Below, in pieces: positions 254 to 25,574 of a DNA stretch of 40,533 nt. Position 1 is the stretch's first letter. The number at the start of each line of letters is the position of its first letter. Both the position numbers and the translations under genes were made by a program. Source of the DNA: Lysobacter sp. GTDB lineage: Bacteria > Pseudomonadota > Gammaproteobacteria > Xanthomonadales > Xanthomonadaceae. The stretch is from NCBI GenBank assembly GCA_008015835.1, contig SSGH01000052.1:1-40533 (forward strand), written 5' to 3'. The notes beneath the pieces were generated by a model that was not told the DNA's origin, searched no databases, and was given only the letters and a program-made list of their open reading frames with translations.

Positions 254-285
254 GTTTCAATCCACACGCCCCCGAGGCCCGCGAC
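254..285 (-). repeat. Degenerate internal CRISPR repeat with a broken stem
   Basis: This repeat unit differs from the array consensus at four positions (plus-strand repeat positions 13, 19, 25 and 26). In crRNA orientation two of the changes turn C-G pairs of the stem into G-G mismatches and one turns G-C into G-T, so the hairpin recognised by Cas5c is probably lost. The neighbouring unit at 320-351 has one change (T to A at position 8), which is in the 5' handle region of the crRNA. Perfect repeats continue on the leader-distal side, so this is not the array terminus. Confidence 0.9.
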
Positions 286-7040: not shown

Positions 7041-9578
<2,538 letters not shown>

Positions 9579-9580
9579 CT

Positions 9581-9651
9581 CAGCACCTCAAGCGCCCTGC
9601 GGGGGACACTCGCATTGTTTCTATCCACGCACCACCTGATTCGGATGCGAC
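9581..9651 (-). ncRNA. Candidate crRNA-like regulatory RNA: one degenerate CRISPR repeat plus pseudo-spacer
   Basis: The 35-bp pseudo-repeat at 9617-9651 ends GTGGATAGAAAC on the minus strand, one base different from the array repeat end GTGGATTGAAAC, and starts with the same GTCGC. Its middle has diverged, yet a hairpin remains: CGCA pairs with TGCG, which includes an A-T pair where the array repeat has G-C, and then CC pairs with GG across a bulged T. The pseudo-spacer (from 9616 leftward) begins AATGCGAGTGTCCCCC and matches two tandem TTC-flanked sites at 9922-9996. This is the architecture of CreA/CreR RNAs known from other CRISPR-Cas loci. Expression and processing are not shown. No clear promoter of its own is visible, so it may be read through from 9886-9914. 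Confidence 0.72.
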
Positions 9652-9730: not shown

Positions 9731-9796
9731 GCGAGCACTCATCTTGTCGTCAGATGCATGCAAGGCAAATTGAGTCCTCCTCTGATAGCGCTTCAT
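9710..9796 (-). CDS. Candidate 28-residue mini-ORF with tandem rare Arg codons
   Basis: An ATG at 9796 opens a 28-codon frame beginning MKRYQRR and ending SARGLPRAT. Codons 6 and 7 are consecutive AGG AGG arginine codons, rare in a GC-rich CGN-preferring genome. A weak AGG lies about 8 nt upstream. The frame ends inside the loop of the 17-bp hairpin. Known CreT toxins are tiny ORFs that exhaust rare tRNAs, so this is one of two possible toxin frames here. I do not recognise a family, and the ORF is short enough to be chance. Confidence 0.3.
   Translation of the reverse strand: MKRYQRRTQFALHASDDKMSARGLPRAT
9739..9768 (-). CDS. Candidate 9-codon mini-ORF behind a consensus Shine-Dalgarno
   Basis: A perfect AGGAGG (9776-9781) is followed after 7 nt by TTG at 9768, opening the frame MPCMHLTTR, which ends in the rare codon AGA followed directly by TGA. 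That TGA overlaps an ATG that would continue into MSARGLPRAT. A strong ribosome-binding site in front of a nearly codon-free frame is how CreT-type toxins are built in other CRISPR loci. The alternative reading is that AGGAGG is simply the two Arg codons of the 28-codon ORF. Confidence 0.35.
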   Translation of the reverse strand: MPCMHLTTR

Positions 9797-9838: not shown

Positions 9839-9873
9839 GAAGGCCTCAAGCGATGCAGACGCTTGGGGCCTTC
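9839..9873. repeat. 14-bp inverted repeat near the 5' end of the predicted gap transcript
   Basis: GAAGGCCTCAAGCG and CGCTTGGGGCCTTC form a 14-bp stem with one G-T pair and a 7-nt loop. On the minus strand it begins close to the predicted start of the 9886-9914 promoter, so it would be a 5' hairpin of that RNA. On the plus strand it is followed by ACTTTT, but no plus-strand gene ends here. Confidence 0.6.
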
Positions 9874-9885
9874 ACTTTTGGCGGC

Positions 9886-9914
9886 ACCGTATCGCAAGCG
9901 CCGCTAGAGGTCAA
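9886..9914 (-). promoter_or_regulatory. Candidate sigma-70 promoter next to the tandem guide-matching sites
   Basis: On the minus strand TTGACC (9914-9909) and TACGGT (9891-9886) are spaced by 17 bp. The start would be near 9879, giving a leader of about 370 nt before cas5c that contains the mini-ORFs and the crRNA-like element. The nearer matching site ends 8 bp upstream of the -35. A Cascade bound there would be well placed to block or modulate this promoter. Confidence 0.5.
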
Positions 9915-9921
9915 TAGATAG

Positions 9922-9959
9922 CACGACAAGGTTACCCTTCGGGTAACATTAGCATTGAA
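9922..9959 (-). promoter_or_regulatory. Guide-matching site 2 (TTC-flanked pseudo-protospacer)
   Basis: TTC at 9959-9957 is followed by AATGCTAATGTTACCCGAAG and then GGG. The 22 bases 9956-9935 match the pseudo-spacer at 17 positions, with mismatches at 6, 8, 12, 13 and 18. The site is also an inverted repeat (GTTACCC/GGGTAAC) and is a 37-bp tandem copy of the site at 9959-9996. It sits just upstream of the candidate promoter. Confidence 0.65.
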
Positions 9960-9996
9960 CACCAATTGTGACCCTTCGGGCCACAATTGCATTGAA
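9959..9996 (-). promoter_or_regulatory. Guide-matching site 1 (TTC-flanked pseudo-protospacer) after the cas3 stop
   Basis: TTC at 9996-9994 directly follows the cas3 TAA and is followed by AATGCAATTGTGGCCCGAAG and then GGG. The 22 bases 9993-9972 match the pseudo-spacer at 17 positions, with mismatches at the same five places as site 2 (6, 8, 12, 13, 18). It contains an 8-bp inverted repeat (CAATTGTG/CACAATTG), so it could also act as a weak cas3 transcript end. Confidence 0.65.
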
Positions 9997-12276
9997 TTAG
10001 AAAATGCAGTCTTGGGGCGGAATCTCGGTAGCATCTTCCCAACGCACCCCGAACCTCGGGTCGTAATACGCCGGCAGCATCAGGCGGAGGAATTGCTCGT
10101 CGCCGAAGCGTTCCGGGCGGACGGCCTGCACGGCGCCGTATCGCTTCAGGTCGGCCAGGGCGGGCTCGGGCAACTGCACCAGATAGGGCTGGAGCACACG
10201 GGAGATGGCGCCGACGCGACGCTGGGGATCGCCCGCTTCCAGCGCTGCCAGCGCTTCGTGCGCAATCGCATCCGGAACGACACGTCCATCGGCCGTCACC
10301 GCGAACGGAACGATCACCGGCTTCAGCGGGCTGTCGATCATCCGGAAGCCGGCCGCGAGGGTCTCGAACGGCAGATTGTCGTGTCGGCAATCCTTCACCA
10401 GCGCCAGCAATCCCTTCTGGTCCAGCCCGTTGTCGCCCTTCTGCCAGTACATCTCCTGGAAGTAGGCCCGCACGGCATCAAGGCCGAGCAGATCCTGCCC
10501 GTGGTGGCGGGCGGTGGTGCGGTAGGCCTGGGCATAACGGGCCAGTTCGTGCGGCGGTGCGTGTTCCGACGAGGAAAACACGAGCACCTCGCTGTCCTCG
10601 ACCGGGCGGCGCCCTTCGCGATTGCAGCGCCCGGCCGCCTGCGCGATCGCATCAAGGCCCGCCTCCGCGCGCAGCACGCACGGGAAATCCACGTCCACGC
10701 CGGCCTCGATCAGCGAGGTCGACACGACCCGACAGGGTTCGCCCTCGCGCAGGCGGCGGCGCACGTCGGCCAGCACCGCACTGCGATGACGCGCATGCAT
10801 CAGCGTGCTCAGGTGCACGGCGCCCGCGCAATCGGCGATCCGTTCGTAAAGCGCGCGGGCATGCCGGCGCGAGTTGACGATGCACAGGATCTGCGGGCGT
10901 TCACGCAACCGCTGCGCCAGGTCGGCGTCGTCACACGGCCCGATGTCGCGAACCCGGACGCGCTGCAACCGGCGATACAGCGCAGGCGGGTCGACGACCA
11001 GCTCGCGCACCCCGTCGAGCCCGTCTACGAAGCCGTCCTCGCGACACAACGCCGGCTGGGTCGCGGTGCACAGCACGACGCTGGTGCGATAGTTGAGTGC
11101 GAGTTCGTCGATGGCCGCCACGCAGGGCCGCAGCAGCGCAGGTGGCAGCATCTGCGCCTCGTCCAGCACGACGACGCTGCCGGCGATGGCGTGCAGCTTG
11201 CGGCAGCGCGACGGCCGGTCGGCGAACAGACTCTCGAAGAACTGCACGGCCGTGGTGACGACGATCGGCGCGTCCCAGTTCTCCATCGCGCGGCGCAGTT
11301 TATCCTGCGCTTCCGGCGCTTTCCCGGGATCGTCGGCCAGCGCGCTGTGGTGTTCGAGCACCGCGGCTTCGCCCAGATCCGCGAAGGCCCGGCGGAAGAC
11401 CGCCGCATTTTGTTCGATGATGCTGGTGAAGGGGATCACGTAGATGACGCGCCGCAATCCGTGCGCGATGGCATGGTCGAGCGCGAAGGCCATGGAGGCG
11501 AGCGTCTTGCCGCCGCCGGTCGGCACGGTCAACGAGAACAGTCCCGGTGCGCGCGCGGCGCCGGCACGGACCTCACCCAACACCTCCTGACGCAATCGGT
11601 GCACCTCGCCGCCCCCGCCGCCCGCCAGTTGCGCGAGGCAGGCATCCAGTCGATCACGCAATGCGTCGAGGGAAGGCGGCGCATCCTGCCGAAACGGCCG
11701 GCCATCGATGCGGCGGTAGAACGCATCGGTATCGAGGTAATCGGCATCGACCAGCGCCGAGAATAGCATGCGGACAAGGAACGCCAACTGGAAGCCGGCG
11801 CGCTGCGGCACCGGCTTGAGGCGCATCGTGGCAGCAACCAGCGCCTCTTCGGACGGCAAACGCAGTTCGCTGCGCCAGTCGTCGAGCAGCGGCGGGAGCG
11901 CCTTCACCAGTCGATCTGCGAGCGACGTGCGCCGCCCCTCCCCATTGCGGCCATTGGCCAACCCGGCGTGATGGCCGGCAATGGCATAGGCGAGCAGGTG
12001 CATCACCGGCGCTATCCGCGGATAGCGGGCGATGATCTCACGCGCACCGTGCGTCGCGTGGTCGAGCTTCGGCGCCTTCCCCTCCAGCCGCGCCTGGAAA
12101 CCATCCGTATACTTGCCCAGATCGTGCAGCAGGCCCGCGGCTTCGGCCAACGCACCCACACCGAATACATCCGCCGCTGTGCGCGCCCGCGCTCCAACGC
12201 CGATCAAATGTTCATCAAGCGGCTGCCAGTCCTGCTTGTCATGTCGATCCGTGGAATGCGCATAGCACCTTTGCAT
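9997..12276 (-). CDS. cas3: CRISPR-associated helicase-nuclease Cas3
   Basis: This 759-residue Cas3 has an N-terminal HD nuclease domain and a C-terminal SF2 helicase. The HD residues are visible as His23, HD51-52 in LLHDLGKY, His73/His76 in DHATHG, and His102-103. Walker A VPTGGGKT is near residues 249-257 and the DExH-type box VVLDEAQ is near 370. Cas3 is recruited to R-loops by Cascade and degrades the target. The ATG at 12276 has AGGGG 6 nt upstream and gives the family N-terminus; the frame is open 21 bp further upstream. It is followed by the 489-bp element-rich gap rather than directly by cas5c, so cas3 and the Cascade genes may be regulated separately. Confidence 0.97.
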   Translation of the reverse strand: MQRCYAHSTDRHDKQDWQPLDEHLIGVGARARTAADVFGVGALAEAAGLLHDLGKYTDGFQARLEGKAPKLDHATHGAREIIARYPRIAPVMHLLAYAIAGHHAGLANGRNGEGRRTSLADRLVKALPPLLDDWRSELRLPSEEALVAATMRLKPVPQRAGFQLAFLVRMLFSALVDADYLDTDAFYRRIDGRPFRQDAPPSLDALRDRLDACLAQLAGGGGGEVHRLRQEVLGEVRAGAARAPGLFSLTVPTGGGKTLASMAFALDHAIAHGLRRVIYVIPFTSIIEQNAAVFRRAFADLGEAAVLEHHSALADDPGKAPEAQDKLRRAMENWDAPIVVTTAVQFFESLFADRPSRCRKLHAIAGSVVVLDEAQMLPPALLRPCVAAIDELALNYRTSVVLCTATQPALCREDGFVDGLDGVRELVVDPPALYRRLQRVRVRDIGPCDDADLAQRLRERPQILCIVNSRRHARALYERIADCAGAVHLSTLMHARHRSAVLADVRRRLREGEPCRVVSTSLIEAGVDVDFPCVLRAEAGLDAIAQAAGRCNREGRRPVEDSEVLVFSSSEHAPPHELARYAQAYRTTARHHGQDLLGLDAVRAYFQEMYWQKGDNGLDQKGLLALVKDCRHDNLPFETLAAGFRMIDSPLKPVIVPFAVTADGRVVPDAIAHEALAALEAGDPQRRVGAISRVLQPYLVQLPEPALADLKRYGAVQAVRPERFGDEQFLRLMLPAYYDPRFGVRWEDATEIPPQDCIF

Positions 12277-12303
12277 GCAATCCCCTGATGTCGGCAACCA
12301 ACC

Positions 12304-17473: not shown

Positions 17474-17550
17474 TGGCGGAGTGGACGGGACTCGAACCCG
17501 CGACCTCCGGCGTGACAGGCCAGCATTCTAACCGACTGAACTACCACTCC
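17474..17550 (-). tRNA. tRNA-Asp (GTC)
   Basis: A 77-nt cloverleaf with acceptor stem GGAGTGG/CCACTCC, G73, encoded CCA, anticodon loop CCTGTCACG and T-arm GGTTCGAGTCC. Its 3' end faces the CRISPR/primase block, which is the usual orientation for an island integrated at a tRNA 3' end. I saw no second copy of the tRNA 3' end inside the window, so the far attachment site, if any, is to the left. Confidence 0.97.
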
Positions 17551-17663
17551 GCGCTGAAACTTGCGGACCGAGCCTTGTGGACTCGATCCATTCGACCGAT
17601 TTCGGTACCGGCCCGAAGGCCGCGTAGTGTACCCGAAACCGATCGCCCGATAAGGCTTCTCCC

Positions 17664-17738
17664 TGGTGGGTGCTGAGGGGTTCGAACCCCCGACCCTCTC
17701 CGTGTAAAGGAGACGCTCTACCGCTGAGCTAAGCACCC
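17664..17738 (-). tRNA. tRNA-Val (TAC)
   Basis: A 75-nt cloverleaf with acceptor GGGTGCT/AGCACCC, A73, encoded CCA, anticodon TAC in CTTTACA and T-loop GTTCGAACC. It sits between hupB and tRNA-Asp and is probably co-transcribed with tRNA-Asp. Confidence 0.97.
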
Positions 17739-24678: not shown

Positions 24679-24760
24679 TGCGAGAGGGGGGACTCGAACC
24701 CCCACACCTTGCGGCGACAGAACCTAAATCTGTTGCGTCTACCAATTTCGCCACTCTCGC
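24679..24760 (-). tRNA. tRNA-Leu (TAG)
   Basis: An 82-nt class II tRNA with acceptor GCGAGAG/CTCTCGC, anticodon TAG in TTTAGGT and a long variable arm (CGCCGCAAGGTG). CCA is not encoded: the sequence after A73 is GATG. It is the last tRNA of the Pro-Arg-His-Lys-Leu cluster, just upstream of tig. Confidence 0.96.
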
Positions 24761-24906
24761 TTGGCGATCATTTTAGGCGCTGTGCGCGATCGACGATAGC
24801 GGCGCGGGCGGCGCCGGGTTCGGGCGGACGAAAGTCGACGCAGACGGCGCGTCCGCGCGCGACGCGAAGAACGCCCGGGACACGAAGCGACGAAGAAAGT
24901 ACCGGA

Positions 24907-24936
24907 AAGAAAAACGCCCGGCTTTCGCCAGGCGTT
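24907..24936 (-). terminator. Intrinsic terminator after tRNA-Lys
   Basis: On the minus strand AAACGCC-TGGCGAAAGCCG-GGCGTTT forms a stem capped by GAAA and is followed by TTCTTT. It lies about 9 bp after the tRNA-Lys CCA. tRNA-Leu further downstream therefore probably has its own promoter or relies on read-through. Confidence 0.8.
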
Positions 24937-24944
24937 TCGGTGAA

Positions 24945-25020
24945 TGGTGGGCCGTCAAGGATTCGAACCTTGGACCTATTGATTAAGAGTCAACTGCTCT
25001 ACCAACTGAGCTAACGGCCC
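24945..25020 (-). tRNA. tRNA-Lys (CTT)
   Basis: A 76-nt cloverleaf with acceptor GGGCCGT/ACGGCCC, A73, encoded CCA and anticodon CTT in CTCTTAA. A 10-bp perfect palindrome (CGCGCAGTCT-AGC-AGACTGCGCG, 25025-25047) lies between it and tRNA-His and may be a processing structure. Confidence 0.96.
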
Positions 25021-25052
25021 GAAGCGCGCAGTCTAGCAGACTGCGCGAATTT

Positions 25053-25130
25053 TGGGGTGGCTGAGGGGACTCGAACCCCCGACAACTGGAATCACAATCC
25101 AGTACTCTAACCAACTGAGCTACAGCCACC
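25053..25130 (-). tRNA. tRNA-His (GTG)
   Basis: A 78-nt tRNA including the extra 5' G(-1) at 25130, acceptor GTGGCTG/CAGCCAC, C73, encoded CCA and anticodon GTG in TTGTGAT. Its first 21 nt and 60 bp of upstream flank are duplicated at 25243-25323. Confidence 0.97.
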
Positions 25131-25190
25131 ATTGAAACTTGTGCGAGCGATTCCATCCGTGGAGCCCTGCCGCTCGGCATCCTGCCTCGC
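25110..25190. repeat. 81-bp direct repeat, copy 1 (5' part of tRNA-His and its upstream flank)
   Basis: The 81 bp from 25110 recur without mismatch at 25243-25323, offset 133 bp. This copy includes the D-arm half of the intact tRNA-His. The 52 bp between the copies carry a 10-bp hairpin (25204-25226) flanked by the 8-bp direct repeat CTCATTCG. Confidence 0.95.
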
Positions 25191-25203
25191 CCTCATTCGC
25201 TGC

Positions 25204-25226
25204 GCGACAGCCCACCGGGCTGTCGC
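25204..25226. repeat. 10-bp inverted repeat within the duplicated tRNA-His flank
   Basis: GCGACAGCCC and GGGCTGTCGC with a 3-nt loop, flanked on both sides by CTCATTCG (25192-25199 and 25235-25242). The layout resembles a small REP-like or MITE-like palindromic unit, but no known family is recognised. Confidence 0.7.
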
Positions 25227-25242
25227 AGGCGCAGCTCATTCG

Positions 25243-25263
25243 ACCAACTGAGCTACAGCCACC
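25243..25263 (-). pseudogene. tRNA-His 5' fragment
   Basis: This 21-nt piece is identical to the 5' end of tRNA-His (acceptor strand and D-stem start) and ends abruptly at the CTCATTCG repeat. It lacks anticodon and T arms, so it is non-functional. It is part of the 81-bp direct repeat copy at 25243-25323. Confidence 0.85.
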
Positions 25264-25323
25264 ATTGAAACTTGTGCGAGCGATTCCATCCGTGGAGCCC
25301 TGCCGCTCGGCATCCTGCCTCGC
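25243..25323. repeat. 81-bp direct repeat, copy 2
   Basis: Identical to 25110-25190. It carries the tRNA-His 5' fragment and the same upstream flank, so any promoter or processing signal for tRNA-His in that flank exists twice. tRNA-Arg lies 54 bp to the right. Confidence 0.95.
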
Positions 25324-25376
25324 ATCACCGCATGAAGCGCGACTCCAGCTCGAAACCGCGGCGCCCGAGACTCGAA

Positions 25377-25453
25377 TGGCGCGCCCGGCAGGACTCGAAC
25401 CTGCAACCACCGGCTTAGAAGGCCGGTGCTCTATCCGGTTGAGCTACGGGCGC
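25377..25453 (-). tRNA. tRNA-Arg (TCT)
   Basis: A 77-nt cloverleaf with acceptor GCGCCCG/CGGGCGC, G73, encoded CCA and anticodon TCT in CTTCTAA. It decodes AGA, the rare Arg codon present in one of the candidate mini-ORFs near cas5c. Confidence 0.97.
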
Positions 25454-25497
25454 ACAAGCGCATGATAGCGGGCCGGAGCGGCATTGGCCGGAAGGTT

Positions 25498-25574
25498 TGG
25501 TCGGGGTAGAGGGATTCGAACCCCCGACATCCTGCTCCCAAAGCAGGCGCGCTACCAGACTGCGCTATACCCCG
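25498..25574 (-). tRNA. tRNA-Pro (TGG)
   Basis: A 77-nt cloverleaf with acceptor CGGGGTA/TACCCCG, A73, encoded CCA and anticodon TGG in TTTGGGA. It is the first tRNA of the minus-strand cluster, divergent from the gene at 25760. Confidence 0.97.

What the first reader, a model, noticed from the sequence alone, without database searches (positions are those of the whole stretch)
9922..9996. Pseudo-spacer matches two tandem TTC-flanked sites, with mismatches at Cascade's flipped-out positions
Two 37-bp tandem units follow the cas3 stop. Each starts TTC, the usual I-C PAM, then matches the pseudo-spacer at 17 of the first 22 bases (AATGC, A at 7, TGT at 9-11, CCCG at 14-17, AGGG at 19-22). Both sites mismatch at the same places: 6, 8, 12, 13 and 18. 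Positions 6, 12 and 18 are those flipped out of the guide-target helix by Cas7, so only 8 and 13 weaken pairing, and matching stops after 22. The pseudo-spacer itself is preceded by the repeat handle and not by TTC. This is what a guide designed for binding without cleavage would look like.
Basis: partly seen in the sequence, partly recalled or inferred. Interest (0 to 1): 0.95.

Follow-up and report, generated by a model that had tools for sequence, protein, structure and literature searches.

The report
CRISPR guide aimed at own locus
A bacterium's CRISPR immune system carries a degenerate one-unit guide that matches, only partially, two docking sites in its own gene cluster; it most likely parks the CRISPR complex there to keep a tiny built-in toxin RNA switched off, a known strategy seen here in a CRISPR type where we found no report of it.

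Summary
A degenerate I-C repeat (9617-9651) is followed by a pseudo-spacer matching two TTC-flanked 37-bp tandem sites just after the cas3 stop: 17/22 bases each, 17/19 when every sixth base is skipped. Chance is unlikely within the gap; genome-wide, only the two sites and the guide fit the pattern at <=3 mismatches. It is not unique. Of 101 distinct I-C cas5c loci, 38 have a cas3-cas5 gap of 200 bp or more; 27 of these carry such a guide/target pair, and none was found in 62 gapless loci. The match is locked to handle end, PAM and 6-nt phase (21 loci against 8-10 in other phases). So the guide-for-binding reading holds, but the class is known: CreA/CreR crRNA-like regulators. Between sites and guide lie a weak promoter-like pair, a hairpin, AGAGGAGG and a nine-codon ORF ending ACA-AGA-stop; similar mini-ORFs in four relatives end in AGA-AGA, AGG-AGA or AGA-AUA. 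Best explanation: a type I-C CreTA module, Cascade held on tandem operators to silence a tRNA-trapping toxin RNA. Repression and toxicity are inferred, untested. Autorepression of cas5-8-7 (CreR) is the main rival.

The parts
9997..12297 (-). cas3 (HD nuclease + helicase, 766 aa); its stop directly abuts site 1
   Evidence: TIGR01596, TIGR01587; coordinates
9960..9996 (-). tandem unit 1: PAM TTC (9996-9994) + target site 1 (22-base match 9993-9972); also a 12-nt-arm inverted repeat
9923..9959 (-). tandem unit 2: PAM TTC (9959-9957) + target site 2 (22-base match 9956-9935); also a 10-nt-arm inverted repeat
9886..9914 (-). putative creT promoter TTGACC-17-TACGGT, -35 beginning 45 nt from the first base of PAM 2 (weak by itself)
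   Evidence: score 7.5, shuffle median 6.2, 95th percentile 9.6; similar spacing in some relatives; not found by the stricter scan
9839..9873 (-). 14-nt-arm hairpin near the putative 5' end of creT RNA
   Evidence: (I3)
9739..9768 (-). candidate creT mini-ORF TTG CCT TGC ATG CAT CTG ACG ACA AGA TGA, preceded by AGAGGAGG (9776-9783)
   Evidence: similar mini-ORFs in L011, L028, L062, L049
9689..9730 (-). strong hairpin (21-nt arms, 95% complementary) between creT and creA; possible 3' end of creT; no T-run follows on this strand
   Evidence: no terminator-like site on this strand
9617..9651 (-). degenerate CRISPR repeat (psi-R) of creA; keeps GTCGC...GCGTGGAT-GAAAC and a hairpin at the place of the native one
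   Evidence: alignment and fold against the native 32-nt repeat
9583..9616 (-). pseudo-spacer (psi-S) of creA, 34 nt assumed; first 22 nt match both sites
9549..9578 (-). 13-bp perfect hairpin after the pseudo-spacer, where a second repeat might have been
   Evidence: (I2)
8833..9507 (-). cas5c (Cas5d), presumed crRNA/CreA processing nuclease; first Cascade gene after the gap
   Evidence: TIGR01876
1..3974 (-). type I-C CRISPR array (native repeat GTCGCGCCCCTCGCGGGCGCGTGGATTGAAAC, spacers mostly 34-36 nt)

Best explanation
The cas3-cas5 gap holds a type I-C CreTA-type module. creA (psi-repeat 9651-9617, pseudo-spacer, hairpin end) makes a crRNA-like RNA that Cas5d should cut and Cas5-Cas8c-Cas7 should load (inferred). 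With sequence matches at 1-5, 7, 9-11, 14-17 and 19-22 (shown), Cascade binds (inferred) two tandem TTC-flanked operators 37 bp apart (3-bp PAM + 34 bp, within the native spacer range), just 5' of a promoter-like -35/-10 (promoter inferred). Pairing over about 22 bases is too short for Cas3-driven destruction (inferred from a published I-C length requirement), so binding represses transcription of a small RNA, creT. CreT has a hairpin, a strong Shine-Dalgarno and a nine-codon ORF ending in two rare codons before the stop. If Cascade is lost or inhibited, CreT would be made and trap scarce tRNA and initiating ribosomes, stopping growth, so the cell is addicted to its Cascade (toxicity inferred by analogy).
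For: Match, PAM, two sites. Comparative, 38 distinct gapped loci (first run with one duplicate): 21 pass with TTC; 8-10 pass in the other five phases and 13 without skipping; 0-1 with the guide start moved by 1-6 nt; TTT 4, the 16 other PAMs tried 0-1; shuffled guides mean 0 of 50 runs (0.02); permuted handles mean 0.28, max 6. Same criteria in the 500 nt before cas5 of 62 gapless loci: 0. Two further pairs with creA on the opposite strand, L068 and L101. Position profile over 24 pairs: 5 = 23, 6 = 3, 7 = 21, 11 = 24, 12 = 7, 13 = 17, 17 = 19, 18 = 9. Guides fit their own target: of 552 cross pairs 5 score 8 or more, involving three couples of related loci. creT: mini-ORFs after a strong SD end AGA AGA GCT TGA (L011), AGA AGA GCA TGA (L062), AGG AGA TCC TAA (L049), AGA ATA TAG (L028), ACA AGA TGA (window). 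SD-preceded mini-ORFs with tandem AGA/AGG: 3 of 37 gaps on the cas strand (1 on the other strand, L080), shuffles mean 0.14, max 2; coding control 0 of 102 (37 and 102 include one duplicate; the test was made after seeing these ORFs). AGA is 3 and ACA 5 of about 8,100 codons of 15 window ORFs, the two rarest; 0 and 1 of 980 in cas3+cas5. Precedents: H. hispanica CreT uses two AGA codons; in H. hubeiense the seed 1-5 and 7-11 with a TTC PAM is what repression needs and 6 and 12 are free (PMC8501985, introduction, one results section and passages).
Against: No RNA or protein data. The window's promoter is weak and not better than shuffled sequence. The mini-ORF begins with TTG, has one AGA, and ACA is not an Arg codon; the tandem AGA/AGG signature proper is in relatives only. 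In a cruder codon count AGA was ninth rarest, and the 15 ORFs of the finer count were picked by length. The sites lie upstream of, not over, the -35. Position 8, inside the 7-11 seed, is mismatched. The hairpin after creT lacks a T-run, so transcription may continue into creA and cas5. The two same-genus relatives with cas5c (of 10 other genomes of the genus) give no help: L027 has a 28-bp gap and L026 another ORF there. Of five loci fetched after the criteria were fixed, two were gapped and neither passed (L119 best 3, L122 6.5). 11 of 38 gapped loci have no counted pair. A looser scan (any [N]TC or TT[N] PAM, handle 8 of 12, score 8 or more) also hits 7 gapless loci, at about the rate its null allows.
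Confidence: 0.66

Rival explanations
1. CreR-type autoregulation: the CreA-like RNA directs Cascade to the promoter region that drives cas5-cas8c-cas7-cas4-cas1, so Cascade represses its own genes and crRNA demand or anti-CRISPRs relieve it; the mini-ORF is incidental.
For: The promoter-like element points towards cas5, and no terminator-like site was found on that strand between it and cas5. A CreR class is described for I-B, I-E and V-A (PMC13131331, one passage; PMC12737573, passages).
Against: About 270 nt with SD and mini-ORF separate sites and guide, with similar mini-ORFs in four relatives. In 14 of 26 distinct loci examined (15 of 27 rows) an ORF in that stretch is instead small and hydrophobic. 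No site lies upstream of cas3 or elsewhere in the genome.
Confidence: 0.2
2. The sites are functional as inverted repeats (3' hairpins of cas3 mRNA, or a dyad operator for a protein), and the pseudo-spacer resembles them because it was copied from one; no guiding takes place.
For: Both units are inverted repeats, with a T-A against G-C difference between the units at the pair 12/24; the fold of unit 1 is strong, z -3.7. In L016, L049 and L062 similarity of guide and target runs on to 28-38 nt with 1-nt indels.
Against: Target hairpins are not general: 3 of 24 with z < -1.5. A copy without guiding explains neither the TTC, the handle register, nor the 6-nt phase.
Confidence: 0.07
3. Chance similarity between a decayed array remnant and a palindromic repeat.
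For: CCCG.AGGG is palindromic; 4 of 1,500 shuffles match some TTC site of the whole window as well.
Against: Gap-restricted shuffles 1 and 0 of 20,000; recurrence in 27 of 38 gapped loci.
Confidence: 0.02

Closest known systems
CreTA (CRISPR-regulated toxin-antitoxin RNA pair; type VIII TA), Haloarcula hispanica and Halobacterium hubeiense I-B
   Same: Degenerate repeat + pseudo-spacer; PAM-flanked partial target; seed 1-5 and 7-11 with 6 and 12 free; a single repeat in creA as in H. hispanica; SD + mini-ORF with rare codons side by side (PMC8501985, passages and sections).
   Different: Type I-C, which has no Cas6; module between cas3 and cas5; two tandem operators; match to 22; bacterial; rare codons at the end of a nine-codon ORF rather than right after the start; creA followed by a hairpin without T-run, whereas H. 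hispanica creA ends in a T-rich terminator.
Acinetobacter I-F CreTA (PMC10097628, passages and one section)
   Same: Sits in a roughly 400-bp cas3-csy1 intergenic region; SD-preceded 33-bp mini-ORF; target flanked by the subtype PAM.
   Different: Two repeats flank the pseudo-spacer there; creT is divergent from creA; different toxin mechanism; I-F.
Citrobacter rodentium I-E CreTA (PMC12055562, passages)
   Same: 495-bp cas3-casA gap, psi-R/psi-S, target overlapping the UP element upstream of the -35, as for the window's sites.
   Different: Translated 96-bp toxin ORF without rare codons; creA on the opposite strand; I-E.
CreR (cas-regulating RNA)
   Same: crRNA-like guide with partial match near the cas genes.
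   Different: Targets a cas promoter and is generally not coupled to a toxin (PMC12737573, passages); here a putative toxin gene lies between.

Membership tests
CreTA | ectopic, degenerate CRISPR repeat(s) next to a pseudo-spacer, linked to cas genes | tested here: met
CreTA | pseudo-spacer partly matches a PAM-flanked site, seed matched, every sixth position free | tested here: met
   but the window also mismatches at 8, within the 7-11 seed
CreTA | target lies at the promoter of a toxin gene | tested here: inconclusive
   promoter-like pair downstream of site 2, not better than shuffles in the window; above the 95th percentile of shuffles in 7 of 24 loci (L016, L045, L047, L049, L051, L071, L113)
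CreTA | creT RNA: strong SD, start codon, tandem rare codons, stem-loop | tested here: inconclusive
   SD and hairpins present; UUG start; ACA-AGA in place of AGA-AGA
CreTA | CreT is toxic when Cascade is absent | not testable with these tools
   needs expression experiments
CreTA | CreA is processed and bound by Cascade and represses creT | not testable with these tools
   needs RNA sequencing or a reporter
CreR | guide matches the promoter of the cas operon | tested here: inconclusive
   sites are about 450-490 bp upstream of cas5 with a mini-ORF between; nothing upstream of cas3
type I-C CRISPR-Cas | Cas3, Cas5c, Cas8c, Cas7 (Csd2), Cas4, Cas1 with I-C models where such exist | tested here: met
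   (cas2 not tested)

The most novel reading that the evidence does not exclude
A Cas6-less (Cas5d-based) type I-C lineage of CreTA in which two operators spaced one Cascade length apart give a graded or cooperative switch, and in which the trap has moved from AGA-AGA to ACA-AGA, draining two scarce tRNAs (Thr and Arg) at once. The I-C cas3-cas5 gap is a cassette site where one guide scheme has been fitted to unrelated toxins: tRNA-trap RNAs, small membrane peptides and HicA-like proteins.
Probability: 0.3. Interest if true: 0.78.

Novelty: new variant of a known kind. Interest (0 to 1): 0.62.

Why it matters
It would extend CRISPR addiction to type I-C, a Cas6-free subtype, and make the fate of I-C Cascade mutants and of anti-CRISPR infections predictable. 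The 24 natural guide/target pairs form an evolutionary readout of what Cascade needs to bind without cutting: seed, PAM (TTC, sometimes TTT) and free positions 6, 12 and 18. They give ready designs for testing binding-only guides. The shared gap position also gives a simple way to find such modules.

Tried and rejected
Chance match: rejected. Dispersed REP-like repeat: rejected, the 81-bp site region has one copy in the genome. Known RNA family: at gathering thresholds Rfam gives only tRNAs in the window. General rule that targets are hairpins: not supported, 3 of 24. Toxin as a longer protein in the window: the longest sense ORF listed between site 1 and the guide has 39 codons and no SD; not pursued. 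DNA similarity of the gap in plasmids: none. Cas5c on plasmids (11 records) and phages (1 record) was found but its gaps were not analysed. Last loci fetched, tested with the fixed criteria: 5, of which 2 gapped and 0 passing.

Rows dropped or not counted: L022 and L023 (short contig and partial match) were never entered; L024 and L025 were fetched and not analysed on their own; 7 duplicates removed; one more (L082, the same contig as L017) slipped through and is in the counts, removed (101 distinct loci, 100 classed by gap, L093 unclassed). L018 and L082 were left out of the 24-pair profile as near-copies of L017; L068 and L101 were not in it. L009 and L028 look like pairs with a 1-nt indel by eye and were not counted. 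14 of the 62 gapless loci are held as stretches under 6 kb. The handle consensus is taken from this array's repeat and from general knowledge, then tested by the offset control.

Full report
What is there. The window is a type I-C CRISPR-Cas locus read on the minus strand: cas3, then a 489-bp gap, cas5c, cas8c, cas7, cas4, cas1 and a long array. The gap holds, in order: two 37-bp tandem TTC sites, a promoter-like pair, a hairpin, AGAGGAGG with a nine-codon ORF, a strong hairpin, a degenerate repeat, the pseudo-spacer and a last hairpin before cas5. The degenerate repeat keeps GTCGC at its start, GCGTGGAT and GAAAC at its end, and a hairpin at the place of the native one with partly different stem bases.

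The match. Both sites match the pseudo-spacer at the same 17 of 22 positions; three of the five mismatches are at 6, 12 and 18. Shuffled pseudo-spacers reach this against the gap's TTC sites in 1 of 20,000 trials, and in 0 of 20,000 when every sixth position is ignored. Against every TTC site of the window 4 of 1,500 shuffles do as well, so that wider test alone is not strong. The genome-wide pattern search with up to 3 mismatches finds only the two sites and the guide, and the site region has no second copy in the genome. The two units differ at four of the first 22 target positions, all of them guide-mismatched.

Relatives. Without duplicates 101 loci remained and 100 could be classed: 62 with a cas3-cas5 gap under 200 bp and 38 with a larger one. 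In the 38, any 12-mer like GTGGATTGAAAC (8 or more of 12) was taken as a handle and the next 34 bases as a guide. The guide was compared with TTC sites of the gap, skipping every sixth base. 21 loci scored 9.5 or more. Skipping another residue class gave 8-10, skipping none 13. Moving the guide start by 1-6 nt gave 0 or 1. TTT gave 4; the 16 other PAMs tried gave 0 or 1. Shuffled guides gave 0 in 50 runs. With one duplicate still in, the same run gave 22, and permuted handles a mean of 0.28, at most 6. The same criteria give 0 of 62 in the 500 nt before cas5 of gapless loci. A wider scan over whole loci and both strands (handle 10 of 12, score 10, target within 1 kb) found no pair in gapless loci and two more in gapped ones, L068 and L101, with the guide on the other strand. 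This makes 27 of 38, L017 and L018 being close relatives. A looser scan that accepted other PAMs also hit 7 gapless loci with scores of 8-11; its shuffled null gives 42 of 3,000 guides at 8 or more. In the last five loci fetched, two were gapped and none passed.

Position profile. In 24 pairs, bases 1-5 match in 23-24, base 6 in 3, bases 7-11 in 20-24, base 12 in 7, base 18 in 9. Sixth positions were not scored, so their low values are not an effect of selection; the high values elsewhere partly are. Guides fit their own target: of 552 cross pairs only 5 score 8 or more, all between L071/L113, L079/L080 or L015/L013. Within one genus, L013 and L015 differ in guide and target alike at base 15 (T/T against G/G). 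Bases 18-36 are more alike within pairs than between (permutation p 0.0008), and in L016, L049 and L062 the likeness runs on past 1-nt indels. This suggests that guide and target began as copies and that full pairing was then broken (inference).

What is regulated. In six of the eight loci with a plus-strand target the best promoter-like pair begins 37-58 nt from the first PAM base (L011 37, L049 43, window site 2 45, L062 47, L047 49, L016 58); in L050 and L086 it does not. For minus-strand targets it overlaps the target in 12 of 16. It beats the 95th percentile of shuffles in 7 of 24 loci, not in the window. In Citrobacter rodentium I-E the target also overlaps the UP element (PMC12055562, passages). 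Cascade of the Xanthomonas albilineans I-C system was assayed by repression of a reporter with a TTC target in its promoter (PMC10810201, passages).

The toxin candidate. In 14 of 26 distinct loci (15 of 27 rows) an ORF after the target has a hydrophobic stretch (mean hydropathy 1.4 or more over 17 residues; no null was run). Nine such peptides align loosely. Five of these and the one of L071 were searched in Pfam: none reached a family's cut-off (two sub-threshold hits at E 0.075 and 0.099). The window belongs to another group. After AGGAGG, L011, L062, L049, L028 and the window have mini-ORFs of 9-11 codons ending AGA AGA GCT stop, AGA AGA GCA stop, AGG AGA TCC stop, AGA ATA stop and ACA AGA stop. 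AGA and ACA are the two rarest codons in 15 window ORFs chosen by length and occur 0 and 1 times in the 980 codons of cas3 and cas5; a cruder count that took in spurious frames ranked AGA ninth. Tandem AGA/AGG mini-ORFs with an SD occur in 3 of 37 gaps on the cas strand and in 1 on the other, against a shuffle mean of 0.14; I had seen the three before making this test. The Haloarcula CreT has two AGA codons, and the H. hubeiense one two AUA codons; strong SD, start codon and stem-loop matter (PMC8501985, abstract, introduction and passages). This is why I read the window as CreTA, with an RNA toxin that traps scarce tRNA. The UUG start and single AGA weaken the case for the window's own copy, which could be a degraded toxin.

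Why it would not cut. In Xanthomonas oryzae I-C, TTC is the PAM and at least 27 matched bases are needed for killing (PMC8406640, abstract and passages). In H. hubeiense the ten seed bases 1-5 and 7-11 are needed, while 6 and 12 can change freely (PMC8501985 section). The same X. oryzae study made deletions of individual cas genes; I did not check whether that strain has a module, so this is a possible point against addiction in general.

Novelty. CreTA is described in I-B, I-F and I-E (papers above); CreR in I-B, I-E and V-A (PMC13131331, passage). The only held paper with both 'CreTA' and 'type I-C' is that review, and 'I-C' gives no hit in the main texts of PMC8501985 and PMC10097628. The original 2021 Science paper is not held; the 2023 CreR paper appears only as a reference in three reviews. 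Earlier mention of I-C there cannot be excluded. PMC10097628 says earlier creTA genes all surround cas6; type I-C has none (general knowledge). I therefore call it a new variant of a known kind. Only the window, 1 of 24, has a second strong site; L103 has a weak one.

Unexplained. Each site is a clean inverted repeat, with a T-A against G-C difference between the units at 12/24. Only 3 of 24 targets fold with z below -1.5. They may serve as the 3' end of cas3 mRNA.

Noticed in passing
L013, L015, L009, L039, L041, L058, L060, L051, L050 (gap upstream of cas5): Small hydrophobic ORFs of 47-68 codons before the psi-repeat, several ending in SPWLG-like motifs: candidate membrane-peptide toxins under CreA control; the five of these searched in Pfam reach no family cut-off.
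   Followed up: partly
L091, L072 and L045, cas3-cas5 gap: HicA-like ORFs in the gap (that of L091 is Pfam HicA_toxin, E 3.3e-17; the other two by eye). L072 and L045 also have a guide/target pair, so CreA may guard a HicA-type toxin in some loci; in L045 the HicA-like ORF lies upstream of the target.
   Followed up: partly
L103, gap: DUF2188 ORF in the cas3-cas5 gap beside a guide/target pair.
   Followed up: no
L026 and L029, gap: In a same-genus relative and a Nevskiales genome the gap holds a different, shared ORF (GIY-YIG-like by eye; the L029 copy has no Pfam hit at E 0.1) and no guide; in L027 the gap is 28 bp.
   Followed up: partly
L068, L101, gap: psi-repeat and guide on the strand opposite to cas5, with a TTC target in the same locus.
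   Followed up: no
L016, L049, L062; by eye also L009 and L028: Guide and target stay alike beyond the seed but in a register shifted by 1 nt, as if an indel stopped the R-loop.
   Followed up: partly
window 9928-9950 and 9963-9989: Both target sites are inverted repeats with a matched difference between the units; role unknown.
   Followed up: partly
window 265-285: One array repeat is degenerate (CACGCCCCCGAGGCCCGCGAC in place of CGCGCCCGCGAGGGGCGCGAC).
   Followed up: no
window 17477-17738 and 24679-25574: Seven tRNA genes on the minus strand in two clusters.
   Followed up: no
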